The position numbers were made by a program, and so were the translations under genes. From positions 1 through 50,808 of the forward strand of contig JACKBR010000034.1 in assembly GCA_020634495.1 (NCBI GenBank): a DNA stretch of 50,808 nucleotides. Reading direction: 5' to 3'. The notes beneath the pieces were generated by a model that saw only the letters and a program-made list of their open reading frames with translations, made no database searches and was not told the origin of the DNA. Every line of letters begins with the position of its first letter. The stretch's first letter is position 1. Shown here one piece after another: positions 1 to 50,808 of the stretch. This DNA is from Ardenticatenaceae bacterium. GTDB lineage: Bacteria; Chloroflexota; Anaerolineae; Promineifilales; Promineifilaceae.

Positions 1-486
1 CCCGGCCATCACCGGGGCAAAAATGCCGGAGCCAGATTCGGCCAGGGAGATCATGCCGTTGGCCCGCGCATACTGTTTTTTGGGCAGCATGGTGCTGATG
101 GCGGCGGAGTAGGCGGGCCACTGGAATGTTTGGAAGGTGCCGGAAATGGCAGCGGTGATGTACAAATGCCACACTTCTAGCAGCCCGGTGGCATACAAAA
201 TGAGCACGATGATGGTGACAATGCCAGAGGCCAGATCGCTGACCATCATCATTAATTTGCGGTCGTGGCGGTCCACAATGGCCCCGGCCATGGGGCTAAC
301 GATGAGCAGCGGCACCAAAAAGAAAAAGCCAATGAGCGCCAGGTCGGTGGCGCGCCCGGTTTGCTCGAAGGCCCAAATGGTGAGGGCAAAGTTGGTCATG
401 CTGGTGCCCAACAGGGAAACGAGCTGGCCAATCCAGACGATGGTGAAGCCGGACATTCCGGCGGGGCGTTTTGTTTCTTCGGTCAT
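1..486 (-). CDS. MFS transporter, N-terminal part (gene truncated by window edge)
   Basis: The first about 162 residues of a major facilitator superfamily exporter are present; the 3' end lies outside the window. The start ATG at 486 is preceded by an AGGAAA ribosome-binding stretch. Visible features are the first transmembrane helices (WIGQLVSLLGTSMTNFAL near residue 18), the loop 2-3 signature DRHDRK, and further helices. It closely resembles the N-terminal half of the full MFS gene at 2287-3591 (IGQLVSLLG versus AGQALSLVG, VDRHDRK versus VDRWSRR), so the two are paralogs of the MefA/MFS_3-like efflux group. The substrate cannot be read from sequence. Upstream lies a hairpin-type intergenic repeat (503-600), so the promoter is not obvious. 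Confidence 0.9.
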   Translation of the reverse strand, partial: MTEETKRPAGMSGFTIVWIGQLVSLLGTSMTNFALTIWAFEQTGRATDLALIGFFFLVPLLIVSPMAGAIVDRHDRKLMMMVSDLASGIVTIIVLILYATGLLEVWHLYITAAISGTFQTFQWPAYSAAISTMLPKKQYARANGMISLAESGSGIFAPVMAG

Positions 487-502
487 AAAGATTTCCTGAA
501 GT

Positions 503-600
503 ACCCGTCATTCTGAGCGAAGCGAAGAATCCCTCTAGACTTTGCAAGCGATAAGCTTTTGATCGCGTCAGGGATTTTCCCTTTGGTCAAAATGACCTTT
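503..600. repeat. Intergenic hairpin repeat, GTCATTCTGAGCGAAGCGAAG family
   Basis: The left end reads GTCATTCTGAGCGAAGCGAA and continues to GAATCCC. The right end reads GGGATTTTCCC and then a degenerate complement finishing in AAATGAC. An inner stem GCGAT (548-552) / ATCGC (562-566) lies between them. The same family appears near 20403-20511. Such terminally inverted repeats are common between genes of environmental bacteria; no coding capacity is seen. Confidence 0.7.
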
Positions 601-640
601 GTAGATTGACGTTTGTTCCCAACAATTTTGGTTGAATAGG

Positions 641-2290
641 CTATGCTTTTTGGGCAGAAATGTTCTGGCCGGAAATAATTCCACGGATTTTATCGCCATC
701 TCTCATGATTTGGAACTGGCGAGGCTGGGTATAGGTCAAATGATAAGTTACCAGCGTGTCGGCGGTGATGGGTTGGGCAACGGCCGTAAAAATATTATCG
801 TTTACCAGTTCCGTTAGAATGACGCCCACGTTTTGCCCATCGCGCCAGATGGAAACAAAGCAAATGTTTTCTTCTGGGCCGGTGAATTTGCTCAGGGCTT
901 CATAAGCGTCGGGCAGGTAGAGGGACGGCCGTATTCCCAAAACCGTCATTTCCGTGGGCTGCACCTCATCCACTACCTCTTGCCAGGTGCGCAAAACGCC
1001 GGGCGTGCGGGCTTCACGGCGAGCCAACGAGGCCAGCAGCGGTTCGGTATCGCCAGCCAGGGCAGCGGCCATGATGGTTTGGGTTTGGCGGAAGGTTTGG
1101 TTGTAAACGGCCGTTTCGGCCTTGCTCAAGCCCAACAGCCAATTAATTCCGGCCTGACCTCCCGGCATCAGGTGCAGCGCGTCATTCTCTACCGAAACGT
1201 GAACGATGCTGCCATCTGGCAAAACAAGATCGCCCACAAATTCTTCCAGCGAGAAAGGTGGCGGTGTTGGCACAGCTGGCGGCAGCGGAATTTCTTCACC
1301 AAAAATAACCGCTTCGATCTGATCTTGAACAGCGTTAATTAATACCTCGCCGTTGTAATCCTGGTTGCAAAAGAGGACGAGCACCACGTTGGCATCGATG
1401 TAGCGGCGGAAGAGGGCGCTGCTGCCGAAGCTGCTGGCCCCATTGTGCTGAAGGCAACGGCCGTACTCCGTTTCCACCACGCGCCAGCCATAAGCATAAT
1501 CGTGAAAATCCGGCGTGTACAGCTTCTGCTTGGCTGCGTCGGACAAAATTTCATCCCCCAGCAGCGCCTGGTGCCAGCAAAACATATCTAAGGTTGTGGA
1601 CAAAATGCCGCCGTTGCCCAGCAAATTCCAGGACGGATACGGTTTGTCTAGCGTGGTGCCAAAGTCGGAACGGCCGTTGTACCAATGCGCCACGTTCATT
1701 TTTGACCAGTCGGGCAGGCGATAGCCGGTGTGCTGCAATCCAGCAGGAGCCAGCAGCTGTTCGTGTAGAAATTGTTCATACGGCCGTTGTCCCGCTTGCT
1801 CAACGATGGCCGCCAGCAAAGAGTAGCCTGCATTCGAGTAGGCATACTCAGTACCGGGTTCAAAGCGCAGCGGCGCAGCGAGGATTTTTAGCACCGTTTC
1901 TTCTTTATCAGCCATGACAAAATCTTCGCCGCTGTAGTTGATGATGCCCGCCGTGTGGGTGAGTAACTGGTGCAGCGTGATGTTGGCTTTGTCGGCGGGC
2001 ACACCGGGGAAAAATTTCGGCAGCGGGTCGCTGGTGTGCAGCTTGCCTTGCATCTCTAACTTCATGATGGCAGCGGCGGTGAACTGTTTGCTGATGGACC
2101 CTGTGCTGAAGACGGTTTGAGCGGTGTTGGGCAACCCTTTGGCCCGATTGGCCAGCCCGTACCCTTTGTTGAGCACGATCTGGCCATCTTTGGCCAGCAA
2201 CATGGCTCCAGAGAAGCCAAAGGGCGTCATGCGGCTTAGATAATCATCAAGCCTGAGACCAAGTTCACCACTTATTATTTCTGTGCTCAT
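641..2290 (-). CDS. Serine hydrolase, class C beta-lactamase/PBP-like fold
   Basis: A 549-residue protein of the beta-lactamase class C / penicillin-binding-protein-like serine hydrolase family. The nucleophile motif SxxK is S65-I-S-K68, the second motif is Y151-S-N153, and the third-motif region reads QHNGASSFG near residue 280. The catalytic domain covers about residues 10-340; the remaining about 200 residues form a C-terminal extension typical of family members of unknown substrate. No signal peptide is visible, so it is probably cytoplasmic. Its ATG overlaps the stop of the upstream MFS gene (ATGA, 2287-2290), implying translational coupling with the exporter. Likely activities are esterase, peptidase or amidase; resistance to a beta-lactam is possible but not supported by anything specific. 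Confidence 0.92.
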   Translation of the reverse strand: MSTEIISGELGLRLDDYLSRMTPFGFSGAMLLAKDGQIVLNKGYGLANRAKGLPNTAQTVFSTGSISKQFTAAAIMKLEMQGKLHTSDPLPKFFPGVPADKANITLHQLLTHTAGIINYSGEDFVMADKEETVLKILAAPLRFEPGTEYAYSNAGYSLLAAIVEQAGQRPYEQFLHEQLLAPAGLQHTGYRLPDWSKMNVAHWYNGRSDFGTTLDKPYPSWNLLGNGGILSTTLDMFCWHQALLGDEILSDAAKQKLYTPDFHDYAYGWRVVETEYGRCLQHNGASSFGSSALFRRYIDANVVLVLFCNQDYNGEVLINAVQDQIEAVIFGEEIPLPPAVPTPPPFSLEEFVGDLVLPDGSIVHVSVENDALHLMPGGQAGINWLLGLSKAETAVYNQTFRQTQTIMAAALAGDTEPLLASLARREARTPGVLRTWQEVVDEVQPTEMTVLGIRPSLYLPDAYEALSKFTGPEENICFVSIWRDGQNVGVILTELVNDNIFTAVAQPITADTLVTYHLTYTQPRQFQIMRDGDKIRGIISGQNISAQKA

Positions 2291-3591
2291 GCGCTGATTG
2301 CCTCTGGGTCAGTTTGCAATTCTTCTGTCACTGTCTTTGCTGCTTCCTGTGGTGCTGCTGGGGAACGGCCGTCTTCCACAGTGAGCAATGCTGGGATGAA
2401 AAATCCGCTAATTCCTACCGCCAATGTGCCCAGCCCGCCCACAATAAACCAGGGCCGAATACCAACCAGATCAACCAGTGGGCCAGCCAAAATGAGCGCT
2501 ATCGGGGTCATGGCTGTAGAAAGACTGCCTAAAAGGGTTAAGACCCGCCCCTGCATTTCAGGAGCAATGGCCGCCTGGAAAATTGCGCGGACGGGGCCGT
2601 TGGTGATGGCAATCATGCCGCCTGTTAGAAAAGCCCCCGCCACGGCCAACCAAAACAGATTGGCTGGAGCAAGGCCAATCAAGGCAAAGCCCAATCCCAG
2701 CCCAATTAAGCCAGTCAGCGTGGTAATGACCCGTTTTTTGAAGCCGCCCCAGGCGCTCAACACAATTCCACCAACGATAATGCCGATGCCAAAGGTTGAT
2801 TCGATGATGCTCAATTCCCAGGCGCTGCCTGAGAAGTGCTGGGTCACGAGCAGGGGCAGCATAACGATGGCTGGCGTCAATATGAAATTTACCATCATGG
2901 CCAGACCCATCAGGATAAGAATGCCGGGCCAGGCCCACACATAAGAAAGCCCCTGGCGCATTTCTGTCCAGAACGAAGATTTTTTGCCAGCAGATGCTTC
3001 ATCTTGGGGAACCTCTGGCTGAGGCACCCGAATGAAGAGCAGGGGGACAATGGCAAATAGCGCGGTGACAATGTCAATGGCCAACACGCCTTGCATGGGC
3101 AGCAAGGCTAAAAACAATGCGCCTAGCGGTGCGCCAATGATGTTTAGACTCCCCTCTAAAACCTGATTGATCCCCTGAATACGGGTGAGCTGCTCTTTGG
3201 GCACCATGAGCGAAGTGGAGGCTTGCATGGCGGGGAAGTGGAAGGCGCTACCCAGCGAGCGGATAAAGAGTAGAGCCATGACGTGCCAAATTTGGATTGC
3301 TTCGATCCAGAAGAGGTAAGCGAGGACAACGGTGGCTGCGGCAATCATGGAATCGGCCAAAAACATTGTCCAACGACGGCTCCAGCGGTCTACCAAAACG
3401 CCAACAAACGGGCCAAGAAATATTTGGGGAATAAAGCCGACCAATGAGGCGGTGGCTAAAATGGTGGCGGAACCGGTTTCTTGGGTGAGCCACCAAATGA
3501 GGGCAAACTGCACGACGGCGCTGCCGACGAGAGAAAGCGCTTGCCCGGCCCATAAAATGAAAAACGGCCGTAATGGTTTTGAATTATTCAT
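2287..3591 (-). CDS. MFS transporter, MefA/MFS_3-like efflux family
   Basis: About 434 residues with some twelve hydrophobic segments and the MFS loop signature VDRWSRR between helices 2 and 3. The N-terminus (ILWAGQALSLVGS, QFALIWWLT) matches the macrolide-efflux-like MFS_3 group of drug and metabolite exporters. An upstream TTG-initiated extension to 3627 is possible, but ATG at 3591 is preferred because GAAAGG lies 11 bases before it and the protein then begins at the usual MNNSKPLRPFF. It is first in a two-gene operon with the serine hydrolase. A strong promoter with an overlapping dyad (3658-3689) precedes it, so expression is probably repressor- or activator-controlled. The substrate is unknown. 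Confidence 0.93.
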   Translation of the reverse strand: MNNSKPLRPFFILWAGQALSLVGSAVVQFALIWWLTQETGSATILATASLVGFIPQIFLGPFVGVLVDRWSRRWTMFLADSMIAAATVVLAYLFWIEAIQIWHVMALLFIRSLGSAFHFPAMQASTSLMVPKEQLTRIQGINQVLEGSLNIIGAPLGALFLALLPMQGVLAIDIVTALFAIVPLLFIRVPQPEVPQDEASAGKKSSFWTEMRQGLSYVWAWPGILILMGLAMMVNFILTPAIVMLPLLVTQHFSGSAWELSIIESTFGIGIIVGGIVLSAWGGFKKRVITTLTGLIGLGLGFALIGLAPANLFWLAVAGAFLTGGMIAITNGPVRAIFQAAIAPEMQGRVLTLLGSLSTAMTPIALILAGPLVDLVGIRPWFIVGGLGTLAVGISGFFIPALLTVEDGRSPAAPQEAAKTVTEELQTDPEAISA

Positions 3592-3657
3592 GCTTTTTTG
3601 CCTTTCAAATGCGAGAAATTGATACAAAGATTAAAAATCTTTAGCTGAATGACAAGA

Positions 3658-3689: not shown

Positions 3690-3889
3690 GAATATTGAAA
3701 ATAATTATGCTTGGACAAAAATTATTGATTTTTGGTGTAATTTTACAAATTGGAATACGAAGTAGAAGTTAAGCAGCAGCGGATAGCGGAAAAGGCAATT
3801 AGGGCAGTGAATCTGTTTCTGGCAGGCAGCTCTGAAAGTTTGGGAGGCTTGGGATTAAGCAGTTGCCATGGCCAAAGAAGGGAAGGGGG

Positions 3890-6658
3890 TTAAGATTTTG
3901 CGCCTAAACGACGGGCTGGTAAGGGCTGGGTCTGCTGCAATATTCGCATCAAATCCTCAACCCTAACAGGTTTACTGACATAATCATCCATGCCGTTTGT
4001 CAGGTAAGTTTCGCGATCTCCAACCAGCGCATTTGCTGTCATGGCCACAATGTGGGGCTGCTGCTCAGGCGGCCATTCTTGCCGAACTCGCTGGGTGGCC
4101 TGGAGACCATCCAGTTCTGGCATTTGAATGTCCATCAGGATCAGGTCGTAGGCTTGGCGGGTAAGCGCCTCGATAACCTCCAATCCGTTAGCCGCGACAT
4201 CTGCTGAATAACCCAGCCGTTCTAGCATTCGCAGCGCCACTTTTTGGTTAATCAGGTTATCCTCAGCCAGTAAAATTCGGAGCGGATGCTCAATGCCTAG
4301 ATTACTCTTAAATTGTGATGTTGATGGGGAGGGCGCAGCTGTACGGCCGTTTTGACCATGTTCAGTAGAGAAAAAGCTATTTAAGCGCTGATACAACTGC
4401 TCAAGATGATAAGGTACATTTAAGCAATGGCTCTCAGGGAATAAATCGAAAACGGCCGTTTGTTTGCCGAGAGGCGTCAGGAAAAGCAAAGGTGGTTTAG
4501 ACATATCCTCAAGCGGCCGTTTCAATCCAGGATTATTGTTTTTCTTCAAAAAATTGAAATCCAATAAAATCACATCAAAGTCTGACATATTGAGCAGGCA
4601 ATCTTCAAGAGCGTTCTCAGCCTGAACACTTACAACATGAATCCCCCAACGGGCGAGCTGATGGGTCAAGACAAGACAGCTTGTTAAATTTTGGTGGCCA
4701 ACAAAAGCTTTTTTACCTGTAAACCGGTGAGAAAGAAGGGTTTCTCCACCCGTATTCGGCGTTTTGGTTGCTTCGCCAAATTCTGCCTGAATTGTAAAAT
4801 TAAAAATACTGCCCTCGTTAAGCACACTTTCTACCCAGATGTCGCCTCCCATCAAAATTACCAGGCGCTTGCTGATTGCCAGACCTAAACCAGTGCCGCC
4901 AAACTGGCGCGTGGTTGAAGAATCAACCTGGCGGAAAGGTTCAAACAAACGCCCCATGCGGTCTTCTGGTATGCCAATGCCCGTATCACGGATCATAAAG
5001 TGAAGTTTAAAACTATCAGGTTCCTTGCTAGCCCCAACCCAAAGATTAATTTCCCCTTTGGCAGTAAACTTCACCGCGTTGCCTAACAAGTTAACCAAAA
5101 TTTGGCGCAAGCGGGTAACATCACTTTGGATAATTGTTGGAACATCAGGCTCGATATAAGCGTTAAGGTACAGATTTTTCGCAGCAGCCTGGGCCGCAAG
5201 CAGATCGACCGCTTCTTCTACACAGTCCCGCAAAACGAAATCTTGTTTTTCAAGATCTAAATTGCCAGAGTCTATTTTTGAGAAATCAAGGATGTCATTA
5301 ACAATATAGAGAAGACCGTCGCCGCTATTCCGCGCTGTTTTAACGTAATCTTCCTGCTCAGGCGAGAGTGGCGTGTCTAGCAGTAGACTGGTCATACCGA
5401 TGACAGCGTTAAGCGGGGTCCGTATTTCGTGGCTCATGCTGGCCAGAAATTGGGACTTTGCTTTGACGGCTTCTTCTGCTGCGGTCTTGGCCGCTTTTAG
5501 TTCAACTTCAAATTGTTTCCTTTCTGCAATTTCTGCTATCAGTGAAGCATTCTTGGCCGCCAGAAGTTGGTCTCGTTCTTGTAAGAGGCTGGCCATATGG
5601 TTGAATGCTTTGGCCACTTCGCCAACCTCGCCATTTTTCACCAGTTCGATTCTGTGATTCAAATCACCTTGTCCGATGCGGTTTGCCCCTTGTTGCAAGC
5701 TCTCGATAGGCTCAAGGATCAAGCGATTAAGTGACCGGCTGATAATAGAACTCACTACAGTGGCAATAGCTATCATGCCACCTACCAGGAGCAGCCAGGC
5801 AATACGACTCATCCTCGTAACTTCACTTTGGGTTATTTCTGTAATAACAATCCAGGGTGTTCCCGGAATCGCTTCTGAAGACCCAATGACAGAAGCGCCT
5901 TCAATATTTGTGTAATTTCCAGACCATTCAAAGCCAGGCGCTGCTAACAGAGCTTCCATTTCTGGCCTGTCTCTTAGTGAAATATGGGCCAGAGGCACAT
6001 CTGGGTTTTTATGGCCAATGATGTCTCCATCACGGTTGATTACATAAGCGGTCCCTGTCTCTCCAAAATGAATATCTGCCACGACATTCCAAAGAATGTT
6101 CATGTCCAGGTGGGCAGCAACCACGCCGCCATCCGCTGCCGGCACTGCCATGATGAGATAAGGTTCATTTGCTGAAGTGATTTGTAAATCACTTAGATAT
6201 AAATGGCCCTTTGTTGCCTGAAGAAACCAGCTCGATTGCGGTATTGTAAACATGTTGGAGAGTAGTGGGGCGTCTTCAGAGGCAAAGGCGAGCACATTTC
6301 CATCCTTGTCTAGACGAACAATTTCGTGGAGGGCAGGCGTTTGTTCAATTTGTGTTTGTAATGCTTCTAGGTACGTTTCACTGTTGCTATATTTTAGAGA
6401 ATCTATCAGGATTAATTGATTCTCGATTTCGTTCAAAAATGTTCCAATGGTTTCGGCCGCACGTATGGCTGCTTCCTGCTGTCTCCCTTGCCAGGCATTC
6501 TTCTCTGCCCGATAGGCGAATAAGATTACGATGGCGCTGGTCATGATTATCATGGCCAACATGGCCCAGCCAAGCAAGGCTAGCAGGCCATATCTTAGAC
6601 TTGTTGGCGACTTAATGAGGAGAGGTAGCTTCCAACTTCGGGACTGTTTGGCGATCAT
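3890..6658 (-). CDS. Hybrid sensor histidine kinase (dCache-HAMP-HisKA-HATPase-REC-REC)
   Basis: 922 residues. Order: transmembrane helix about 22-50, extracytoplasmic Cache-type sensor about 65-285, second helix about 286-308, HAMP about 312-365, coiled coil to about 400, HisKA with phospho-acceptor H410 in SMSHEIRTPLNAV, HATPase with N527, DTGIGIP (558-564) and GGTGLGLA (587-594). Next comes a degenerate receiver-like segment about 645-765 that keeps D700 but lacks the usual Lys-Pro pair (NVPY near 748). The C-terminal receiver about 793-915 is complete (ED 799, D843, K896). The architecture suits a BarA/TorS-like phosphorelay start, but no Hpt or output regulator is adjacent. It starts 5 bases after the PotD-like lipoprotein gene, so the two are co-expressed; the lipoprotein probably presents ligand to the Cache domain. 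Confidence 0.95.
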   Translation of the reverse strand: MIAKQSRSWKLPLLIKSPTSLRYGLLALLGWAMLAMIIMTSAIVILFAYRAEKNAWQGRQQEAAIRAAETIGTFLNEIENQLILIDSLKYSNSETYLEALQTQIEQTPALHEIVRLDKDGNVLAFASEDAPLLSNMFTIPQSSWFLQATKGHLYLSDLQITSANEPYLIMAVPAADGGVVAAHLDMNILWNVVADIHFGETGTAYVINRDGDIIGHKNPDVPLAHISLRDRPEMEALLAAPGFEWSGNYTNIEGASVIGSSEAIPGTPWIVITEITQSEVTRMSRIAWLLLVGGMIAIATVVSSIISRSLNRLILEPIESLQQGANRIGQGDLNHRIELVKNGEVGEVAKAFNHMASLLQERDQLLAAKNASLIAEIAERKQFEVELKAAKTAAEEAVKAKSQFLASMSHEIRTPLNAVIGMTSLLLDTPLSPEQEDYVKTARNSGDGLLYIVNDILDFSKIDSGNLDLEKQDFVLRDCVEEAVDLLAAQAAAKNLYLNAYIEPDVPTIIQSDVTRLRQILVNLLGNAVKFTAKGEINLWVGASKEPDSFKLHFMIRDTGIGIPEDRMGRLFEPFRQVDSSTTRQFGGTGLGLAISKRLVILMGGDIWVESVLNEGSIFNFTIQAEFGEATKTPNTGGETLLSHRFTGKKAFVGHQNLTSCLVLTHQLARWGIHVVSVQAENALEDCLLNMSDFDVILLDFNFLKKNNNPGLKRPLEDMSKPPLLFLTPLGKQTAVFDLFPESHCLNVPYHLEQLYQRLNSFFSTEHGQNGRTAAPSPSTSQFKSNLGIEHPLRILLAEDNLINQKVALRMLERLGYSADVAANGLEVIEALTRQAYDLILMDIQMPELDGLQATQRVRQEWPPEQQPHIVAMTANALVGDRETYLTNGMDDYVSKPVRVEDLMRILQQTQPLPARRLGAKS

Positions 6659-6663
6659 GGAAT

Positions 6664-7740: not shown

Positions 7741-7802
7741 CTTCACTTCCTGAATTTACCTCTAAAACTGCCTGCGTGAAGTTTATCCAGATTGCATTGA
7801 GA

Positions 7803-7821
7803 ATAGTATGAGACCTAGGTC
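7803..7821 (-). promoter_or_regulatory. Perfect palindrome GACCTAGGTC upstream of the binding-protein/kinase operon
   Basis: The 10-base perfect palindrome GACCTAGGTC (7812-7821) lies 72 bases before the ATG of the PotD-like gene. On the minus strand it is followed by TACTAT (7808-7803), a possible -10 box, so a bound regulator could cover the promoter spacer. No good -35 is visible. The assignment as an operator is a guess. Confidence 0.3.
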
Positions 7822-7862
7822 ATAGCGTATCAGGAAGTGGATAAAAGGAGGAGCTAACAAAA

Positions 7863-7898
7863 GAAGAGGCAACTGCCCCAAAAGGCAGTTGCCTCTTC
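7863..7898 (-). terminator. Rho-independent terminator after the E2 gene
   Basis: Perfect 15-base-pair stem (7863-7877 with 7884-7898) and a 6-base loop. On the minus strand the stem is followed by TTCTTTTG. It lies 72 bases beyond the E2 stop, so it ends the dehydrogenase transcript and isolates the next operon. Confidence 0.85.
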
Positions 7899-7970
7899 CA
7901 AGTTTAGCGTAGGTTTGTAATTATTTGCCAAAGATCAGCAATCAATATTTCTTATTTTGCAGGCACCAGC

Positions 7971-11874: not shown

Positions 11875-11898
11875 GGCGGGAAACGGCCGTTTCCCGCC
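11875..11898. repeat. Perfect 24-base palindrome centred on ACGGCCGT
   Basis: The left half reads GGCGGGAAACGG and the right half is its exact complement. It lies in the leader of the E1 gene, 35 bases before its ATG and just upstream of the ribosome-binding site, so it would form a 12-bp stem without a proper loop in RNA or a cruciform in DNA. It is a longer version of the window-wide octamer. Confidence 0.85.
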
Positions 11899-12693: not shown

Positions 12694-12927
12694 GGTTGCT
12701 TGAAATCTCCAAAAAGTTTCAACTTCGACGTTGATGATACTCTGGCTGAACTTTTTTGGCGAGTTGGGAAGGGAAACGGCCGTTCTCAACAAAATTCATT
12801 TTCAAAAAAGATTGTGCAGTAGAGTACAAAAAGAAATTTGAATAAAAATGAGTGCGACTTTGGGTATTGCTTTCACAAACTAAAGAGAAATCTCCTTATG
12901 GTTTTCTAAGACCCTTTTGTGGTTTGC

Positions 12928-15711: not shown

Positions 15712-15916
15712 GCGTGTCCCTCTTGTTTATTTTGTTGGAAAGTCGCCTGCTCAGCAGCATCATGTGCCTGGGGCGAAAGTCTATCATACGGCCGTTTCCC
15801 CGGCAAAAGCAGTGACATTTTACATGAAATTCTGACGCAGTGCATCATGAAAAGTGAAGTTGGCCGGGTTTAAGATTTTTGAAGGCGCTCAAAAAGGGTG
15901 ATATATTGATAAAATC

Positions 15917-39281: not shown

Positions 39282-39359
39282 GTTGCCTCTTTGTTGGGTG
39301 GACAGATAGGATTTCGCCGGTTGACGGCCGTTCTGCCACCCGCTACACTGTTCTGCGCA

Positions 39360-43069: not shown

Positions 43070-44269
43070 TTAACCAATTGCCTCAGCCAGCGCCGCCAAT
43101 GCTCCTTGCTCGGCGGCGTAGATTTGTTCCAGATGGGTTTGCATGTTGGCAAAGAGGGTGTGCATTTCCTGGTCGCTGATGGGGAAACGGCCGTTTAATT
43201 CCACCTCCATATCTTGCAACTGCTGGCTCAATTGGCGCAGCTCGGCATCGGCCCCCGTGCCCTGTGCCAAAAAGAGGGCGTACTTTTGCGCCAGCAGCGC
43301 TTTTGTCTCTTTTAGCGGGGCAATGCTGTCTGGCAGCACCGCCTCGGCAAAGCTGCTCCACAAGGCAGCCACCTGCCGGTACTGCGTAGCCGCTTCTCCC
43401 AGCCCAGGCATATTCAGGATAGCTTCGGCTTCGGCCAGAAAATCGGCGTAAAAACCGCGCAGCCCGCCGCCCGCCGTGCCAAAATGCTTGACGCCTTCGT
43501 GTAACGAGCGGAGTGTGCTGTACAGCCCCACTTTTTCCTTAAAGACGACGGGCCACCCTTTTTTGTTTTTACTGTCGGTCATCATTTTGGCCCACTTTTT
43601 GTAAACCGGCAGGGCAAAGGTTTGCGATGTTTGGCTGAGATAATCGACGCAATCTTCTAAGCCAGCCATGATGGCTGCTGGCAAATCAAACGCGCTGCCG
43701 CTGCCTTGCAGCAGGAGCAGCCGGTTTTTGTACGAGCCAATTCTGCCCCGTGCTAGTTCCAAAGTTTCGCCAGCGACGCTAAGCGGCTTTTGGGCGCGAT
43801 CATCTAGCAAGTAACGGCCGTTTTCCTGGCCAAACACGGTGACAAAGTGACCAAAGCAGCCGCTGTACATGGGGCGCAAATAGAAGTAGGGCAATTTTTC
43901 TTGATCGACCCAGGCAATGGGAAAACGGCCGTCTGCCAGCGCTTTATCCAGGTGTTTTACGGCCGTTTTTGCACCGCCTGTTTCTAAAAATTGGGCCTGC
44001 ACCCCCACGCGATCACAGAAATTTTGCATGAATTCGGTGGTGTAATTCCATTTATTTTGGAAGCCCATCACCAAAATGGCAGACTCATATTTTTTGAACT
44101 CCCACAGGATGTAGCCGCAGCCCAGCCCGCCCGCAATGCCCAGCACCATCGCCTCGCTGAGGGGACGGCCGTTGTGCGGCGACACAAATCCCTGATTGGC
44201 CAGCACATTGGTCATTGTGGCCGTTTCCGGGTGAATGCCGCCGATTTGGGTGTAATTTTGTTGATTCAT
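43070..44269 (-). CDS. BtrH N-terminal-domain protein (DUF4872-like)
   Basis: About 399 residues from ATG 44269, which has AAGGAG 7 bases upstream. The N-terminal half resembles the BtrH_N / NlpC-P60-like cysteine-protease relatives (LSEAMVLGIAGGLGCGYILWEF, GHFVTVFGQENGRYLLDDRAQKPLSV), with Cys in GLGCGY and a later His in FGHFVTV as possible active-site residues. The C-terminal half is helical. BtrH is an acyltransferase-type enzyme in butirosin synthesis, but here there is no antibiotic cluster, so the role is unknown. The 301 bases upstream are a heptamer repeat array, so its promoter must lie within or beyond the array. Confidence 0.85.
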   Translation of the reverse strand: MNQQNYTQIGGIHPETATMTNVLANQGFVSPHNGRPLSEAMVLGIAGGLGCGYILWEFKKYESAILVMGFQNKWNYTTEFMQNFCDRVGVQAQFLETGGAKTAVKHLDKALADGRFPIAWVDQEKLPYFYLRPMYSGCFGHFVTVFGQENGRYLLDDRAQKPLSVAGETLELARGRIGSYKNRLLLLQGSGSAFDLPAAIMAGLEDCVDYLSQTSQTFALPVYKKWAKMMTDSKNKKGWPVVFKEKVGLYSTLRSLHEGVKHFGTAGGGLRGFYADFLAEAEAILNMPGLGEAATQYRQVAALWSSFAEAVLPDSIAPLKETKALLAQKYALFLAQGTGADAELRQLSQQLQDMEVELNGRFPISDQEMHTLFANMQTHLEQIYAAEQGALAALAEAIG

Positions 44270-44583: not shown

Positions 44584-45476
44584 ACCCGAACCGGTACAAA
44601 AACGTCCGTCTCGTTAAGGGCGTAGGCCGGATTGATGCGTGTGGTGCGGTAAATTTCAATCACTGGCAGGCCGATTAGTTCAATATTTTTGATTTGCCCC
44701 AGCTGGTGAAAAAATATCTGGTACACCTGGTCAAATCCGGCATCGAGCGGGCCGATGTAGGTCATGGTGGCAAAATGGCCGCCGGGCAACTGCTGAAAGC
44801 CGACGCTGCCTTGTGGCTGAAAGGGTTCGGGCACGCTCAGGCAAACATCGAAGCGCACTTTTTTGGTGGGGGTGATGTTGGGGTCGTCGTGGCCAACGCC
44901 CAGCAGCAGATTGTTGCCGTCGTATAAGCCATGCCCATCGGCCCATTTGATGAGCGTGTCGTACTGCCCGGTATCCACATTTTCGTATGCGCCCAAATGG
45001 CGAATGAAGGCCACCGGGATGGGCTTTAACTTTTGGATAGTGACGCGGGAGCAGCTTGTTTGGGTGGCCAGGGCGTTTAGCAGGGTGGTGTTGGCGGGGT
45101 GTTGTTGGTGCAGGGTACGGCCGTATGACACACGGTACTGCTTTGGCGTGACCCCAAACCACCGTTTGAAAGCCCGGGTAAAGGTCTCTGGTGCCTGGAA
45201 GCCCACATTCAGAGCAATCTCCAAAATGGTGGCCTCCCGAATCTTCAGGTCAAATGCAGCTCGCTCCAGCCGCAGCCGCTGGGTGTACTGCTTGGGCGTC
45301 TCGCCAATGGCGCGTTGGAACAGCCGGTGAAAATGGTACGGCGACAGCGCCGCCATCTCAGCAATTTGCTCCAAGGAAAGATCGCCATCCAAATGGGATT
45401 GAATGTGGGCCAGGATGGGCAGCAGAGCGGCCGTTTGGTTTCTAGAATCAACTGTGGTTGAGCGAGTCATGGGCAT
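44571..45476 (-). CDS. AraC-family regulator with C-terminal GyrI-like ligand-binding domain
   Basis: 301 residues. N-terminal AraC/XylS DNA-binding domain with two helix-turn-helices (LSLEQIAEMAALSPYHFHRLFQRAIGETPKQY and ILEIALNVGFQAPETFTRAFKRWFGVTPKQY), then a GyrI-like effector domain from about 145 (VTIQKLKPIPVAFIRHLGAYENV ... ETDVFVPV). This is the SbmC/Rob-like layout that senses small molecules and controls efflux or stress genes. ATG 45476 or 45470 is possible, and no Shine-Dalgarno is visible. The last residues (SNQ) and the TAA stop lie within the neighbouring repeat array, so the array has replaced the original gene end. Confidence 0.93.
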   Translation of the reverse strand: MPMTRSTTVDSRNQTAALLPILAHIQSHLDGDLSLEQIAEMAALSPYHFHRLFQRAIGETPKQYTQRLRLERAAFDLKIREATILEIALNVGFQAPETFTRAFKRWFGVTPKQYRVSYGRTLHQQHPANTTLLNALATQTSCSRVTIQKLKPIPVAFIRHLGAYENVDTGQYDTLIKWADGHGLYDGNNLLLGVGHDDPNITPTKKVRFDVCLSVPEPFQPQGSVGFQQLPGGHFATMTYIGPLDAGFDQVYQIFFHQLGQIKNIELIGLPVIEIYRTTRINPAYALNETDVFVPVRVSNQ

Positions 45477-45482: not shown

Positions 45483-45644
45483 CGATCAGAAAACGGCCGT
45501 TTCTTGATCTTTCTTGCGGTTTAGTGAATCAGTGGTTTATGGCCATCTTCGTCAGCATTTCGTCAGTTTGGCGTTGAGTTGAGACCCTCCTCTTGCATTA
45601 TGCTCCTGGCGAATCTTGAAGTTGCTCCCATGTGAGGTGAAAAA

Positions 45645-46283
45645 ATGAAGAAGTTTTGTTTAACAATGATCGTTTTGGGCAGCCTGCTGCCTGGTCTGGT
45701 TGCTTGTGTTCCGGCATCGGAAAATGTGATTGAGGAAACGGCCGTTCCTGACACCCAGGAAGCGGCCGTTCAACCCACTGAAGCCGCGCCAACCGCTGCC
45801 GCCGAATCAATTGAATCCGCCGCGTGTGCATCAGAAACTGGCCACATCTTCCAGAGCGAAGAAGGCGGCTACTGCTTTGTTTATCCAGAGGATTACTGCT
45901 GGCTGCCGGGTCAGGATGCGCTGGTCAACACTTTTGTCAGCGTGGATTCTGATAATGCCGAAACAAACCGCTGTCCCGATGAGCCGCTCATTTTACATGG
46001 CGACGTGGTTTGGATTTCTATCAACGTGGCTCAGGCCAACGGACAGTCATTGGATGAGGCCGTTGCCAGCGTCACAGCCGGGCTGGAGGATTTTGGGCTG
46101 GAGATGGAATCGGTGGTGCTGGCTGGGGAAACGGCCGTACAAATTAACAACATGCCTGGCCAGGACATCAGCCGTGAACTGCTCACCCTCCACAACGGCC
46201 AGCTCTACCGATTTACGTTTGTGCCCGCTGGGGCAGATGCGCTGTACCAGCAGGTAACGTCAACTTTTCAATTTTTACCATAG
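45645..46283 (+). CDS. Hypothetical lipoprotein
   Basis: 212 residues. A signal sequence (KKFCLTMIVLGSLLPGLVAC) ends in a lipobox with the lipidated Cys at 21. A low-complexity Ala/Glu/Thr/Pro linker (about 25-60) leads to a small globular domain with several Cys (CASETGHIFQSEEGGYCFVYPEDYCW, NRCPDEP) that may form disulfides outside the cell, and a C-terminal part typical of PsbP/DUF1795-like beta-sheet domains (ISRELLTLHNGQLYRFTFVPAG). GAGGTG precedes the ATG. Function is unknown. Confidence 0.88.
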   Translation: MKKFCLTMIVLGSLLPGLVACVPASENVIEETAVPDTQEAAVQPTEAAPTAAAESIESAACASETGHIFQSEEGGYCFVYPEDYCWLPGQDALVNTFVSVDSDNAETNRCPDEPLILHGDVVWISINVAQANGQSLDEAVASVTAGLEDFGLEMESVVLAGETAVQINNMPGQDISRELLTLHNGQLYRFTFVPAGADALYQQVTSTFQFLP

Positions 46284-46299: not shown

Positions 46300-47061
46300 T
46301 CAGGTACGCAGGTAAGATGCGCCGTTCACGTCGATGATGGCCCCGGTGAGAAATTGGGTGCCTTCGGCGGCAAGAAAGAGCACCGGGTAAGCCACTTCGT
46401 CCGGGGTGGCTACCCGGTTCAGCGGGCTTTGGCCACGAATGCTTTGCCCAACTTCCCCCACGAGAAACTCTTCCGCCATGTCGGTTTCCACAAAGCCAGG
46501 GGCTACCACGCCCACAAAAATGTTGTGCGGGGCCAGGTATTTGGCCAGCGATTGGCTCATGGCGTTTAGCCCGGCTTTGCTGGCTCCGTAGGCGGGGGCG
46601 GTTGGCTCGCCCCGAAATGCGCCGCGTGACGAGACGTTGACGATACGGCCGTATCCCTGCGCAATCATCTGCTGCCCCACCAGATAAGTCAGATTGGCCA
46701 CACCAATTAAGTTAACCGCCAGCGTTTGCTGCCAGGCGGCCTGCCACGCGGCAAATGACACCTCTGCCAGGGGATGATCTTCATAAATGCCTGCATTGTT
46801 AACCAAAATGTCGATACGGCCGTACCGGCCCACAACCTCATTGACCAATGCTTGCAAGGAGGCCGGATCAGCCATTTCTGCCTGGGCAATGTGGTGATTG
46901 CTGCCTTCGAGAGATACGGCCGTTTCCTCTGCGGCGGCCCGGTTGCGATTGTAATGCACCACCACCTGCGCCCCATGCCGGGCAAACTGCTGGCAAATCG
47001 CCCGGCCAATGCCCCGCGATCCGCCCGTGACTAAAACAACTTTGTTTGTAAAATCCATCAT
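46300..47061 (-). CDS. 3-oxoacyl-reductase-like short-chain dehydrogenase (FabG-like)
   Basis: 253 residues, a full-length classical SDR. Cofactor motif VLVTGGSRGIGRAI, with HYNRNR after beta-2 suggesting NADPH preference, NNAGIYE, catalytic Ser in VNVSSRG, YGASK, and PGFVETDM. The C-terminal LTGAIIDVNGASYLRT is also typical of FabG-like enzymes. AAGGAG lies 4 bases before the first of two adjacent ATG codons. It is convergent with the lipoprotein gene (16-base gap). Without neighbouring fatty-acid genes the substrate stays open. Confidence 0.92.
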   Translation of the reverse strand: MMDFTNKVVLVTGGSRGIGRAICQQFARHGAQVVVHYNRNRAAAEETAVSLEGSNHHIAQAEMADPASLQALVNEVVGRYGRIDILVNNAGIYEDHPLAEVSFAAWQAAWQQTLAVNLIGVANLTYLVGQQMIAQGYGRIVNVSSRGAFRGEPTAPAYGASKAGLNAMSQSLAKYLAPHNIFVGVVAPGFVETDMAEEFLVGEVGQSIRGQSPLNRVATPDEVAYPVLFLAAEGTQFLTGAIIDVNGASYLRT

Positions 47062-47396: not shown

Positions 47397-47423
47397 CCCG
47401 AACTATTTTAGGGTAACGGCCGT

Positions 47424-50400
47424 TTAATTTTCATCAGTAGGCGTGGGCGGTTGGGTGGGAGGGATGGCCTCGGTTGGCTCAACGGCCGTATCCTCACTCT
47501 CGCTTGTATCCTCAACAGGTTCCGCTTCTTCAGATGGTTCCTCAACCGGTTCCTCAATCGATTCTTCCTCAACGGGCTGCTCAACCGGCTCTTCGATAGG
47601 CGCTTCAATTGGCACCACCGGGGCAAAAATTGGCGCATATTTAAGCACGCGGTTGTTGCCCGCATCAGCAATGTAAATATTGTCTTGCCCGTCGATGAAA
47701 ATGCCGTTGATCAGATTCAGGCTGTTGGCATCGGTGCCAAACTGGCCAAACTTGCCCAAATAGCTGCCATCTGGCCCAAAAATGAGCACCCGCGCCGCTT
47801 CTGGATCGGTCACATAAACCCGATTGCCGCTGTCCACCGCCAGGTACGGCTTGTTGTTGATGGAGGTGTTGGCTGGCCAGCCGGTGTCCAGCAGCCATTC
47901 GTTGATGGGGATGAGGTCTGAGGTGAACTGCTGGATACGGCCGTTCCACGTATCCGCCACATAGACAAAGCCATCGGGGCCAACGGCGATGCCCACCGGC
48001 TCATAAAACTGGCCCAAACCCGCGCCAAACTGGTCGTTGCCCGCACCCAGCTGGCCGATGAAATTGCCAGCAGCATCCATAATTTGCACGCGATGGTGCC
48101 CGGTGTCGGTGACCAGCGCCCGCCCATCGGCGGTAAGCGCCACTTCACGCGGGCCAAAGAACAGGCCCAGCCCTTGCCCCTGCGGATCGTCTAACGTGTT
48201 GCCGGGACGGCCGTAACTGCCCACAAACTGCCCATCCAGGGTAAACTTTTGCAGGCGATGGTTCCAGGTGTCGGCCACGTACACAAATTCTTCGTCAATG
48301 GCCAATCCCCATGGCCCTTGCCCTTCGATATTAAACTGGCCATCGCCCGTGCCTGGGCTGCCAAAGCTGTTGATGAGCTGCCCGGCTGGATCAAACACCT
48401 GCACACGCTGGTTGCCGGAGTCCAGAACATAGATACGGCCGTCTGCACTCACAGCCACATTACGCGGGGCAAAAAACTGATCGTTTGCCGTGCCCGCCAC
48501 TCCGCTCAGGTTGAGCACCAGCGAAGGGGCAACAGCGATCTCGCCATCTTCATACGGCGTTTCCAAACCGGGTGCGCCTACTGCTTCCAGACCAAAATCC
48601 CACAGGTCAGCCAGCACATCTTTGCGCACGTACAGACGCAAATCATCGCGCAGCGGCCACTGCCCGTCGGTCAATGTGCCGCCAAAAGTTTGGCTGTATT
48701 TGCTAAAGTCGCGGTAAAAGAAGATGTCCCACAGCGCCTCGCGTACGTTGGGGTTCAGCAGGCCGCGCCTTTCCACCCCCTCCAGGCGATTGGGATCGCC
48801 CAAAATGGCAGCCCAGCCAATGTTGCGATAATCCTCCATGGGCCACCACAGGTAGGTGTAGGTGCGGTAGGTGTAATTGCTGCCCAACAGCCGGTCCACT
48901 TCATCCCAATTGCTGCGGCCGACCAGCACAATGGGCGAGTCGTTGAGCGTGGCGCTGGGCGTTTCGCCAAAGTAAACGCGGTTGGGGTATTCACGCATGT
49001 ACCAGGTGAAGGGCCAGGAAACGCCGCTGCCGCCAAAGGCCACTTTAATGCTTTTATCGCCGTGCAGCCGCATGGAGAGGGTTTCAATTTCATCCAACAC
49101 CATGCTTTTAGCGGCTGGTGCGCCGTGGGCGTACACCATAAATTCGCGGGCATAATCGGCGTTGGGGAAGCTGGAGAGGTAAGTAAAACGAATGGTGAGG
49201 ACGGCCAAAATGGCAAATGTTGTCAGTACGGCAAGCGGGCGGCGCAAACGGCCGTCTAGCTTTTCACGCGCTTGCTGCCAGAACCAAAAAACCAGCGACG
49301 CCAGGACGATGCCGCCCAACACGCGCCCCATTTGGTTCAAATTATTTAGCTGCTGGCTGCCCAACTGTACCTTGCCCAGCAGCACAGGGCCTAAAGCGAC
49401 CAGCACAGAAACAATCAAGCCCAGAGTTAGTCCAACGTAGGTAAGCGCCTGCCGCGAAAACAGATCGCGCCAATGCACCTCTTTAAACCGTTCATTGATG
49501 TACCAACCGCTGAGCAGCCCCATCGGAATGACAAAATGGGTGCTTAGCCAGGGCATCTTTTCCCCAGCCACGCTGTAGGCGACCCAGGTAAGCGCCAGCC
49601 ACCAGCTGACAAAGGCCACAAACTCGCACATGATGTCCCGCGCCAGCAAGCTCATCAAGCTTTTTTCCAGGCCATGCGTCCGCAAAATTTGGTCGCGCCG
49701 AATAAAGAACCAGCCCAAAATGGCAATTCCTAGCACCAGCAGCGCTGTCAAAATGCCAGGCAAGCGAGTTGTGGGCAGCCCTTCGGCCACGTTGCCTAAA
49801 TTAAACACCCAGTTGCTAAAGCTGTAGCCAAACAACGCCAGCAAAACGGCCGTTACCCAATACCCGGTCACCTGGTTAATGCGCTGCTTGATCAGCCAGA
49901 ACCGGATGGCCAGCAGGGCAAAGATCAGGGGTAAAAATTCATAAAAAGGCACTACGAAAAAATAGTAAAACGATGGTTGGTTGCCTCGCGCCACGCCCTG
50001 TTGTTCCAGCCAGTAGCCCAGGGAGCCAATGGTGCCGCTGGTCCAGCCAGAAAAATTGGTGAACACAGAGGTGTACAAAATAAGGAAAATTGTGTGGAAA
50101 ATAACGGCAGAAATAATCCAGCGCCGCTGATCCCACCACAGCCCAATGAAGATGGCGATGATGAGGGTGATGGTGAGGAAAACGGCCGTTAAAAAGATAG
50201 GCGAATCAATAAAGGCGCTCCAGCAAGTGCCGTTGAATAGGCGGGCAAAAAAGAGTTGGAAAGCCGACATGGCGTCTTGCCCCTCCAAAATGCAGGTGTT
50301 AACCGTGTAGTCGCGTGGATTGCCACCTGCCAGCACCACCAACAGCGGCGAAGCCATAGGCAAAATGAGGGTGGTAAACAGGACGATGAGATCAAATTCG

Positions 50401-50808
50401 CTGTAGTTCTTCAAAAACGGCCGAAACCGGAATGCCAGCCAAAACAGCCCGCCGCCCAGCGTAAAAATTCCCGCAATTTGCACCCAGCCTAGCTGATTTT
50501 GAATGGCGTTGCTTTGCTCTGCTTCTGGCGTGACCAGCGCGTCCTGTTCCGGATCCGCCGCAAACACACCGCTGTCTTCTGGGACAACGGCCGTTTCCGG
50601 TTGAGCTGCCAACTGCTGCCCCAATAAACCACCACCGACCAACAATAATCCTAAAAGAATCAGCAGCACAGGCGTGGTCAGTTTGCCTAAATTGTTGCGC
50701 AGCCAGGGAGCCAGCCAAATTTGCGGCAGCAGGCGCAAAATTAAAAAGCTGCCAAAGATGGCCACATAAATAAAAGACACTTCTTTGGTGGAAAACATTA
50801 AGGCGGTT
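47424..50808 (-). CDS. Agl23/TIGR03663-like membrane protein fused to an NHL beta-propeller (5' end outside window)
   Basis: At least 1127 residues; the frame stays open to the window edge and the visible start (FSTKEVSFIYV) matches an internal segment of the family, so the N-terminus, including the catalytic-type DE loop, is missing. About 12 helices are visible, with the family signature VAGEKMPWLSTHFVIPMGLLSGWY near residue 410. A soluble region follows, then six NHL repeats (for example APRNVAVSADGRIYVLDSGNQRVQVFD and ADTWNHRLQKF) forming a propeller from about 770 to 1050, and an acidic Glu/Pro-rich tail. It probably takes part in lipid-linked sugar transfer or flipping, with the propeller outside as a binding platform. 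Confidence 0.9.
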   Translation of the reverse strand, partial: TALMFSTKEVSFIYVAIFGSFLILRLLPQIWLAPWLRNNLGKLTTPVLLILLGLLLVGGGLLGQQLAAQPETAVVPEDSGVFAADPEQDALVTPEAEQSNAIQNQLGWVQIAGIFTLGGGLFWLAFRFRPFLKNYSEFDLIVLFTTLILPMASPLLVVLAGGNPRDYTVNTCILEGQDAMSAFQLFFARLFNGTCWSAFIDSPIFLTAVFLTITLIIAIFIGLWWDQRRWIISAVIFHTIFLILYTSVFTNFSGWTSGTIGSLGYWLEQQGVARGNQPSFYYFFVVPFYEFLPLIFALLAIRFWLIKQRINQVTGYWVTAVLLALFGYSFSNWVFNLGNVAEGLPTTRLPGILTALLVLGIAILGWFFIRRDQILRTHGLEKSLMSLLARDIMCEFVAFVSWWLALTWVAYSVAGEKMPWLSTHFVIPMGLLSGWYINERFKEVHWRDLFSRQALTYVGLTLGLIVSVLVALGPVLLGKVQLGSQQLNNLNQMGRVLGGIVLASLVFWFWQQAREKLDGRLRRPLAVLTTFAILAVLTIRFTYLSSFPNADYAREFMVYAHGAPAAKSMVLDEIETLSMRLHGDKSIKVAFGGSGVSWPFTWYMREYPNRVYFGETPSATLNDSPIVLVGRSNWDEVDRLLGSNYTYRTYTYLWWPMEDYRNIGWAAILGDPNRLEGVERRGLLNPNVREALWDIFFYRDFSKYSQTFGGTLTDGQWPLRDDLRLYVRKDVLADLWDFGLEAVGAPGLETPYEDGEIAVAPSLVLNLSGVAGTANDQFFAPRNVAVSADGRIYVLDSGNQRVQVFDPAGQLINSFGSPGTGDGQFNIEGQGPWGLAIDEEFVYVADTWNHRLQKFTLDGQFVGSYGRPGNTLDDPQGQGLGLFFGPREVALTADGRALVTDTGHHRVQIMDAAGNFIGQLGAGNDQFGAGLGQFYEPVGIAVGPDGFVYVADTWNGRIQQFTSDLIPINEWLLDTGWPANTSINNKPYLAVDSGNRVYVTDPEAARVLIFGPDGSYLGKFGQFGTDANSLNLINGIFIDGQDNIYIADAGNNRVLKYAPIFAPVVPIEAPIEEPVEQPVEEESIEEPVEEPSEEAEPVEDTSESEDTAVEPTEAIPPTQPPTPTDEN

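What the first reader, a model, noticed from the sequence alone, without database searches (positions are those of the whole stretch)
1..50808. HIP1-like hyperabundant palindrome ACGGCCGT
About 94 copies by eye against about one expected. Roughly 80% of all CGGCCG hexamers here carry the flanking A and T, where about 6% would be expected, which is an internal control against plain base composition. Copies occur on coding sequence of both strands, in all reading phases and between genes. The only well-known parallel is HIP1 (GCGATCGC) in cyanobacteria. I know of no description of this octamer in Chloroflexota. It may be a methylation target, a repair or replication mark, a chromosome-organising site, or a product of biased mutation.
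Basis: partly seen in the sequence, partly recalled or inferred. Interest (0 to 1): 0.9.

Follow-up and report, generated by a model that had tools for sequence, protein, structure and literature searches.

The report
Hyperabundant DNA palindrome in Chloroflexota bacteria
A group of environmental bacteria, and some viruses of bacteria, carry the same eight-letter DNA palindrome very many times at conserved places, while some related lineages use a slightly different palindrome, which suggests a genome-wide recognition mark whose reader is still unknown.

Summary
It is genome-wide: the nearest relatives G001-G003 carry 11,512-12,866 copies, and by my rule 28 of 56 genomes of one Anaerolineae order share it. 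Others there use TCGGCCGA (2), GCGGCCGC (1) or TGCCGGCA (1); a few have CGGCCG enriched without one dominant octamer. Codon usage does not explain it (88 observed, 8.5 expected). Sites are held: 29 of 34 are conserved against G001, background octamers 22%; fourfold-degenerate positions inside sites are identical at 59 of 61, outside at 53%. The outer base pair switches in place between lineages. Five phage contigs carry it at 1.6-3.5 per kb, found by a scan biased to dense ones. Half of the 28 genomes lack a detected C5 methyltransferase; four lack an N6/N4 type too. It works like cyanobacterial HIP1, with another sequence, in another phylum, without an obligatory methyltransferase found. Best reading: a recognition site of an unidentified host DNA factor, maintained site by site. 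Repair drive remains a live rival.

The parts
1..50808 (.). Whole window: 94 ACGGCCGT sites, 1.85 per kb, gap lengths close to exponential (CV 1.03)
780..787 (.). site
   Evidence: exact match
925..932 (.). site
1107..1114 (.). site
1457..1464 (.). site
1670..1677 (.). site
1780..1787 (.). site
2365..2372 (.). site
3564..3571 (.). site
4343..4350 (.). site
4452..4459 (.). site
8072..8079 (.). site in E2 gene
8530..8537 (.). site in E2 gene
8790..8797 (.). site in E2 gene
9451..9458 (.). site in E1 gene
9675..9682 (.). site in E1 gene
10184..10191 (.). site in E1 gene
11883..11890 (.). site in E1 gene
12644..12651 (.). site
12776..12783 (.). site
14047..14054 (.). site
15788..15795 (.). site outside the called CDS
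16485..16492 (.). site
16773..16780 (.). site
16979..16986 (.). site
17403..17410 (.). site
18109..18116 (.). site
19122..19129 (.). site
19219..19226 (.). site
19842..19849 (.). site
19950..19957 (.). site
20347..20354 (.). site outside the called CDS
20543..20550 (.). site outside the called CDS
21008..21015 (.). site
21275..21282 (.). site
24390..24397 (.). site
25062..25069 (.). site
25434..25441 (.). site
25485..25492 (.). site
26409..26416 (.). site
26922..26929 (.). site
27383..27390 (.). site outside the called CDS
27798..27805 (.). site
28582..28589 (.). site
29379..29386 (.). site
29398..29405 (.). site
29787..29794 (.). site
29809..29816 (.). site
30816..30823 (.). site
31233..31240 (.). 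site
31936..31943 (.). site
32576..32583 (.). site
32724..32731 (.). site
33321..33328 (.). site
33720..33727 (.). site
34121..34128 (.). site
34140..34147 (.). site
34517..34524 (.). site
34539..34546 (.). site
35963..35970 (.). site
36666..36673 (.). site
37207..37214 (.). site
37941..37948 (.). site outside the called CDS
38808..38815 (.). site
39235..39242 (.). site
39324..39331 (.). site
39534..39541 (.). site
39879..39886 (.). site
40200..40207 (.). site
40637..40644 (.). site
40660..40667 (.). site
41924..41931 (.). site
42007..42014 (.). site
42613..42620 (.). site
43187..43194 (.). site
43814..43821 (.). site
43925..43932 (.). site
43959..43966 (.). site
44165..44172 (.). site
45117..45124 (.). 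site
45493..45500 (.). site outside the called CDS
45738..45745 (.). site
46131..46138 (.). site
46645..46652 (.). site
46816..46823 (.). site
46916..46923 (.). site
47416..47423 (.). site outside the called CDS
47482..47489 (.). site
47937..47944 (.). site
48207..48214 (.). site
48435..48442 (.). site
49248..49255 (.). site
49846..49853 (.). site
50182..50189 (.). site
50587..50594 (.). site
3709..7968 (.). site-poor stretch (histidine kinase and PotD-like genes) with no aligned counterpart at this place in G001 or G002; 2 sites, 7.9 expected; probably a later insertion

Best explanation
ACGGCCGT is a highly iterated palindrome: a genome-wide recognition site for a sequence-specific, probably dimeric host factor, most likely part of DNA maintenance or self-recognition. 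SHOWN: hyperabundance across genomes; strong conservation of individual sites, including synonymous positions; the core CGGCCG is kept together with the outer pair; the outer pair differs between lineages and switches in place; the same site is dense in some phages and conserved in the one phage pair tested.
For: Conservation: window sites identical in 29/34, 27/33 and 18/23 aligned places against G001, G002, G003 (background GC-6 octamers 22-30%), while CGGCCG lacking the full outer pair keeps its core in only 4/11, 3/11, 5/10. Fourfold-degenerate bases inside sites identical 59/61, 57/60, 39/40, outside 53-58%. Some E1/E2 gene positions carry the core in up to 20 of 26 rows, with A...T replaced by T...A or G...C in genomes using those versions. 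Core near-misses are not enriched (0.48-0.91 of Markov-3 in the two A sets) and no one substitution type is singled out in both; outer-base near-misses are enriched 2.2-2.3x, mainly through G and T, not C. Proteins bend to the motif: TAV is the commonest tripeptide of 27 window proteins (42; permutations 2-9), 41/42 written ACGGCCGT; pooled 473/488. Phages: 85 sites/33.5 kb, 226/100 kb, 227/65.5 kb, 89/57 kb, 106/46 kb in 5 of the 8 records given, with terminase and/or portal genes; in a pair of related phage contigs 11/16 sites conserved, background 28%. An A-type island lies inside a T-type contig of G005.
Against: No reader protein was identified. Spacing is near random and pooled density alike in coding and non-coding DNA, as a blind process would also give. 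A strong site-specific repair or conversion process acting on any resident DNA would mimic most of this. The phages were found by scanning for clusters of three sites, so their densities are biased upward; a host is indicated for only one of five. Loci of 3.4 and 3.1 kb around terminase relatives in A-type genome G165 hold no ACGGCCGT, so phage-like DNA can lack it. No convincing T-type phage turned up.
Confidence: 0.5

Rival explanations
1. Biased repair or mutation ratchet: a host process (such as Elhai's proposed GmeC-directed mismatch repair) converts near-sites to the palindrome and protects existing ones, in any DNA replicated in the cell, without a function for the site itself.
For: Pooled density alike in coding and non-coding DNA and near-random spacing; phages carry it too; outer-base near-misses enriched in A and T sets and phages, as Elhai reports for HIP1 (PMC4390886; abstract, sections 7, 9, 17 and part 1 of 2 of section 18 read); the core contains GGCC, a possible GmeC.
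Against: 14 of 28 A-type genomes have no C5 MTase match, 5 no N6/N4 MTase match, 4 neither (MAGs, so incompleteness may explain some). Vsr in 8 of 56 genomes. No particular near-miss type is depleted in both A sets as a fixed chemistry would give. An A-type island keeps 16 foreign sites with only 3 local-type ones.
Confidence: 0.27
2. Chi-like protective or recombination site that stops an end-degrading nuclease; being palindromic it acts from both sides, and phages gain by carrying it.
For: Phage carriage and conservation in one phage pair; a short-term benefit for any replicon.
Against: The only PF12705 (RecB/AddB nuclease) match in each of G001, G002, G003 lies in a 282-331-aa frame, not a RecB/AddAB-sized protein, though A-type G181 and G179 have frames over 1,100 aa. 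Known Chi sites are not palindromic (GCTGGTGG and AGCGG quoted in PMC5101192, passage seen).
Confidence: 0.1
3. DNA uptake sequence: taken-up self DNA is preferred through the motif and recombination spreads it.
For: Lineage versions with a fixed core and variable outer bases resemble DUS dialects, which are present in thousands of copies (PMC3630211, abstract and outline read).
Against: Some phages carry it at host-like or higher density, which uptake does not require. Competence genes and a receptor were not tested.
Confidence: 0.06
4. Target of a restriction-modification or orphan cytosine methyltransferase.
For: N6/N4 MTase genes are commoner in A-type genomes (23/28) than in none/mixed ones (13/24), Fisher p 0.04, not corrected for phylogeny.
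Against: Absence in several strongly A-type genomes; C5 MTase presence not associated (14/28 vs 8/24, p 0.27). Other palindromic octamers are depleted, median 0.35-0.56 of expectation in the A- and T-type sets, the direction that restriction usually gives (recalled).
Confidence: 0.07

Closest known systems
HIP1 (GCGATCGC) of cyanobacteria and alternate HIPs such as TCGATCGA, GGGATCCC (Elhai 2015, PMC4390886)
   Same: Hyperabundant octameric palindrome, about 500-2,500 per Mb there and 440-2,100 here; hexamer core with a preferred outer pair; lineage alternates (TCGATCGA differs only in the outer pair); near-misses mostly at the outer base; in two named cyanophages nearly all CGATCG lie in HIP1 (Nostoc phage N1 19/20, Planktothrix PaV-LD 16/17, in the 30 kb of each that was read).
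   Different: Different core (CGGCCG), different phylum, no obligatory MTase found here, hexamer-only genomes in the same order, direct evidence of site-by-site conservation and of phage carriage. Nodularia phage 2AV2 has 20 of 40 CGATCG in HIP1 and Microcystis phage MaMV-DC none in the 41 kb read.
DNA uptake sequence dialects of Neisseriaceae (PMC3630211, abstract and outline read)
   Same: Thousands of copies, conserved core, lineage-specific variants.
   Different: DUS is not palindromic (recalled) and works in uptake; here some phages carry the motif and no uptake test was possible.
Very short patch repair (Vsr)
   Same: Repair can enrich a palindromic motif (recalled).
   Different: Vsr in only 8 of 56 genomes.
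Chi sites
   Same: Over-represented octamer (E. coli).
   Different: Palindromic here and denser (recalled for E. coli); RecB/AddAB-sized PF12705 protein not found in G001-G003.

Membership tests
HIP1 of cyanobacteria | Sequence GCGATCGC | tested here: not met
   The motif is ACGGCCGT; GCGATCGC occurs 0 times in the window CDS
HIP1 of cyanobacteria | Found in cyanobacteria | tested here: not met
   Closest loci L001-L003 are Anaerolineae/Anaerolineaceae MAGs
HIP class (highly iterated palindrome) | Palindromic octamer far above Markov expectation, about 1 per kb or more, genome-wide | tested here: met
   28 A-type genomes range 0.44-2.10 per kb
HIP class (highly iterated palindrome) | Lineage alternates, near-misses biased to the outer base | tested here: met
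   the near-miss bias is absent in G006 (16/40)
HIP class (highly iterated palindrome) | Coextensive with a cognate DNA methyltransferase | tested here: inconclusive
   No C5 or N6/N4 MTase match in 4 of 28 A-type genomes; MAG completeness not told; target specificity of the MTases found not tested
DNA uptake sequence | Promotes uptake of DNA by transformation | not testable with these tools
   needs transformation assays
Chi site | Recognised by RecBCD/AddAB/AdnAB | tested here: inconclusive
   No RecB/AddAB-sized PF12705 frame in G001-G003; long frames in some others
Vsr-driven motif | Vsr endonuclease present | tested here: not met
   8 of 56 genomes
Methylated restriction-modification target | Modified base at the site | not testable with these tools
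   needs long-read kinetics or nanopore signal

The most novel reading that the evidence does not exclude
Highly iterated palindromes are a replicon passport: a self-mark that a host machine reads on all DNA in the cell, so that chromosome and phages must both carry it at high density.
Probability: 0.25. Interest if true: 0.95.

Novelty: new variant of a known kind. Interest (0 to 1): 0.86.

Why it matters
HIP1 was described in 1995 (Robinson et al., as cited in PMC4390886) and Elhai in 2015 still called its relation to methyltransferases a mystery (section 17). A second, independent system in another phylum, with several versions inside one order, genomes without it, phages that carry it and measurable site-by-site conservation, lets the methylation, repair, uptake and self-recognition ideas be compared directly. 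The motif also shapes proteins (TAV as the commonest tripeptide) and might assign phages and transferred islands to host lineages.

Tried and rejected
Codon preference: rejected, 8.5 expected versus 88. Base composition or Markov artefact: rejected. Repeat-element origin: flanks show only a weak symmetric GGrW/WyCC preference; among the direct repeats, family D13 (5 copies of 35 nt, 66-100% alike, 4 of them holding the site) is the one that looks built around the site. Regular spacing: not seen in 4 host stretches; G156 is clumped (CV 1.21, above 99% of random draws) and G001 has one 7.1 kb gap; of 5 phage records G203 was more even than chance at 5 kb windows (P 0.016), G202 less even. Cytosine MTase as the common cause: not supported. 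Vsr: not supported. RecB/AddAB-type Chi: weakened. T-type phages: 7 stretches, their loci under 1 per kb or with 6 or fewer sites. GCGGCCGC and TGCCGGCA phages were not scanned. HIP1-rich viral contigs: 40 of 97 loci above 1.5 per kb with at least 8 sites; hosts of the four contigs looked at could not be told.

Paper searches for prior reports (open-licence PMC only): 11 papers; 196 hold the octamer letters, 30 listed, none on Chloroflexota by title; 15,676, 20 listed, terms too broad; 11; 12; 2. No listed title or abstract start mentions this octamer in Chloroflexota; most of these papers were not opened. A 2018 HIP1 selection paper that I recall is not held.

Full report
OBSERVATION. The window holds exactly 94 ACGGCCGT. 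Expected: 1.03 by base composition, 0.8-3.3 by Markov orders 1-3; the next commonest palindromic octamer has 6 copies. 94 of 123 CGGCCG hexamers carry the outer A...T. The flanks add a weak, symmetric preference: A or T at -1 (54 A, 29 T of 94), G at -3 and -4 (50 and 58 of 94), mirrored on the other side. Given the proteins and the codon usage, 8.5 copies are expected in the called genes, 6.2/2.2/0.09 by frame; 88 are seen, 45/35/8. 87 sites fall in genes; site 39324 lies where two called genes overlap and is counted in both.

WHOSE GENOME. No whole genome is held for the window. The pyruvate dehydrogenase E1 gene (9396-11912) has its closest relatives in Anaerolineae MAGs: L001 91%, L002 and L003 86% protein identity. 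Their genomes (G001-G003) lie in one order of which 56 genomes are held. The tool does not name the order. G073, with contigs of 3.99 and 1.00 Mb, may be Ca. Promineofilum breve, reported with two chromosomes and a plasmid (PMC6753630, passages seen); if so the order is Promineifilales. This is inference.

GENOME-WIDE AND LINEAGE-BOUND. Copies per genome: G001 11,512 in 7.3 Mb, G002 11,907 in 8.1, G003 12,866 in 7.7, G004 11,524 in 5.8; the reversed octamer gives 64-403 in these. In a sample of 150 genomes of the class only G001 and G138, both of this order, exceed 1,000. In the order, 28 of 56 are A-type by my rule (over 0.4 per kb and five times the next of four tested octamers), 0.44-2.10 per kb. 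G161 and G005 instead have TCGGCCGA (9,414 and 7,668), G006 has GCGGCCGC (12,040), G175 has TGCCGGCA (3,665). The other 24 are none or mixed; among these, samples of G162 and G192-G194 show CGGCCG 15-19 times over base composition without one octamer as dominant as in the typed genomes (in whole G192 ACGGCCGT is still three times the next). The preferred -1 base also differs: A in the window and G001-G003, C in G155-G160, T in the T-type set, C in G006. On a tree of E1+E2 proteins (33 rows, one with under 500 residues left out) the states need 5 changes; 0 of 200 label shuffles were as low; G161 has a long branch.

SITES ARE HELD. Only 14.9-19.0 kb of the window aligns to G001-G003 at over 150 bits per block, and 2.1 kb to G180. 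There, at about 80% DNA identity, window sites are identical in 29/34 (G001), 27/33 (G002), 18/23 (G003) and 4/5 (G180) places, and in the other direction 29/31, 27/30, 18/22 and 4/5, gapped places counted as misses; other octamers with 6 G/C in 22-31%. CGGCCG without the full outer pair keeps its core in 4/11, 3/11, 5/10 and 1/1 (G001, G002, G003, G180). Fourfold-degenerate third positions with unchanged first two bases: 59/61, 57/60, 39/40 inside sites; 1271/2409, 1406/2496, 1186/2029 outside; positions near sites are intermediate, 64-69% (G001-G003). The G001 contrast has Fisher p 6e-14. Across the order, at about 70% identity, E2 column 445 carries the core in 20 of 26 rows and E1 column 2230 in 17 of 33, not all rows covering every column. 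At E2 column 1163 ACGGCCGT (win, G001, G002, G180, G188, G004, G181, G171, G170; A...C in G003) becomes TCGGCCGA in G005 and G161, but also in A-type G163 and non-HIP G182; E1 column 2154 shows A...T, T...A, G...C and G...A. Some shared columns (for instance E1 1953, G...G in 16 rows) are not the octamer and reflect conserved amino acids, so column sharing alone is not proof; the synonymous contrast is the stronger test.

PROTEINS BEND. TAV is the commonest tripeptide of 27 window proteins, 42 against 2-9 for its permutations, and 41 of 42 are written ACGGCCGT. Pooled: 473/488 (window, G001-G003), 453/475 (G155-G160), 244/261 (five phages); in T-type genomes 2/23, while SA[DE] is TCGGCCGA in 196/218; in G006 AAA is GCGGCCGC in 115/141. 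TAV written otherwise is rarer in the A sets (15 in 187,675 aa and 22 in 131,810 aa) than in T-type genomes (21 in 73,486 aa).

NEAR-MISSES. With sites masked, Markov-3 expects 17.4 sites where 1,099 occur (window, G001-G003 samples). Single substitutions in the core occur at 0.48-0.91 of expectation in the two A sets; outer-base ones at 2.2-2.3, in the first set through G and T (181/66, 140/34) and not C (25/50). The T set gives 0.40-1.30 and 1.9; in G006 outer near-misses are depleted (16/40), so that pattern is not universal. Random GC-rich octamers range 0.3-1.9 in the A sets, so the core values are at most mildly low.

ISLANDS. In G005 (T-type) contig C4 a 10.4 kb stretch holds 16 ACGGCCGT and 3 TCGGCCGA between T-type flanks on the same contig: most simply DNA from an A-type donor. 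Window 3709-7968, without counterpart at that place in G001 or G002, has 2 sites where 7.9 are expected (p 0.015). Incoming DNA is thus not converted quickly.

PHAGES. Four scans of viral contigs for three clustered ACGGCCGT hit 40 different contigs; 17 of these have a locus with at least 10 sites at 1 per kb or more (counted). Eight records were counted whole: five have 85/33.5 kb, 226/100 kb, 227/65.5 kb, 89/57 kb, 106/46 kb, three only 12-16 in 36-65 kb. PHROGs finds terminase and/or portal proteins in the five (30 of their proteins were given, 18 had a match at 1e-5; G202's terminase and portal are weak, 5e-11 and 3e-9). Because the scans ask for clusters, the densities are biased upward. 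The terminase of G201 has a 92% identical relative on a 22.5 kb contig binned in G180, a member of the window's clade; that contig has 31 sites in the 14.5 kb read, and 11/16 of its aligned sites are conserved in the phage (background 28%). That contig may itself be phage DNA binned with the host. The other three terminase matches (52-54% identity, two in A-type G165, one in G185) lie in loci of 3.4, 3.1 and 2.3 kb without any site: a result against a strict rule. G201's flank preferences (A 0.58, T 0.22 at -1; G 0.54 at -3) equal those of the window's clade (A 0.58, T 0.22; G 0.51); G203's (T 0.37, A 0.26 at -1) match none of the sets that I profiled. As a parallel, HIP1 is enriched in three of four named cyanophage stretches (20 in 50 kb, 19 in 30 kb, 16 in 30 kb, expected 0.1-0.3; none in 41 kb of MaMV-DC), and 40 of 97 viral loci from a HIP1 scan exceed 1.5 per kb.

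GENES TESTED. PF00145 (C5 MTase) in 25 of 56 genomes, PF01555 in 40 of 56. Of the 28 A-type genomes 14 lack the first, 5 the second, 4 both (G001, G159, G166, G187). Their completeness is not told, and those with a known title are MAGs, so 4 misses alone do not exclude a universal PF01555 enzyme, but half lacking C5 MTases is hard to explain so. Whether the PF01555 hits include one shared orthologue was not tested. Vsr 8 of 56. PF12705 46 of 56, but in G001-G003 only in 282-331-aa frames.

MECHANISM. Shown: over-representation, conservation, versions, phage carriage. Inferred: a dimeric reader that needs CGGCCG and prefers a lineage-specific outer pair. Selection on each site in every replicon explains synonymous and protein-level conservation, persistence over genera and phage carriage. 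A repair drive explains the even density over genes and gaps, and phage carriage, but needs an unknown machine that restores any of several substitutions. I put 0.5 on the first and 0.27 on the second. The uptake idea is weakened by the phages; Chi by the missing nuclease in G001-G003; methylation by the missing MTases.

KNOWN OR NEW. It works like HIP1 and belongs to the HIP class by abundance, palindromy, alternates and (in A and T sets) near-miss pattern; it is not HIP1 by sequence or taxon, and the MTase link is unmet or open. In Elhai 2015 the words phage and Chloroflex do not occur in the main text. I found no report of this octamer in Chloroflexota in the listings, a limited library of which I opened few papers.

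Noticed in passing
window 9292-9374: AT-rich intergenic hairpin repeat of about 65 bp (9280-9395 minus strand folds as RNA with z -4.4); similar copies at 83-92% identity lie at several places in G003, G157-G160 and G180.
   Followed up: partly
G175 (L188, L261-L263): This genome of the same order has TGCCGGCA (3,665 copies, 4.0 Mb) and almost no ACGGCCGT (14): a different core.
   Followed up: partly
G162, G192-G194 samples (L246-L259): CGGCCG itself is 15-19 times enriched without one dominant octamer: possibly an ancestral or relaxed state.
   Followed up: partly
G005 C4:29531-39897 (L190): 10 kb island with the foreign palindrome version inside a T-type contig; the motif versions could date and source transfers.
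   Followed up: partly
window 27423-31997 and 32225-36736: Two paralogous giant proteins of about 1,500 aa (the first with CBM96) in tandem, 70-80% alike in DNA over several blocks.
   Followed up: no
window 44314-44583: Short tandem repeats of GTCAGTG- and TGATTACTGTTTTAC-like units between genes.
   Followed up: no
G156, G157, G158, G170, G178, G179: 14-19 PF01555 methyltransferase matches in single genomes, many compared with the rest.
   Followed up: no
L452-L455: In the 30 kb read of Nostoc phage N1 and Planktothrix PaV-LD nearly every CGATCG lies within HIP1 (19/20, 16/17), whereas Microcystis phage MaMV-DC has no CGATCG in 41 kb (7.4 expected): perhaps two opposite strategies.
   Followed up: partly
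window 641-3627: A PF00144 beta-lactamase-family serine hydrolase and a Mef-like MFS transporter; both score far below the curated resistance cut-offs.
   Followed up: no
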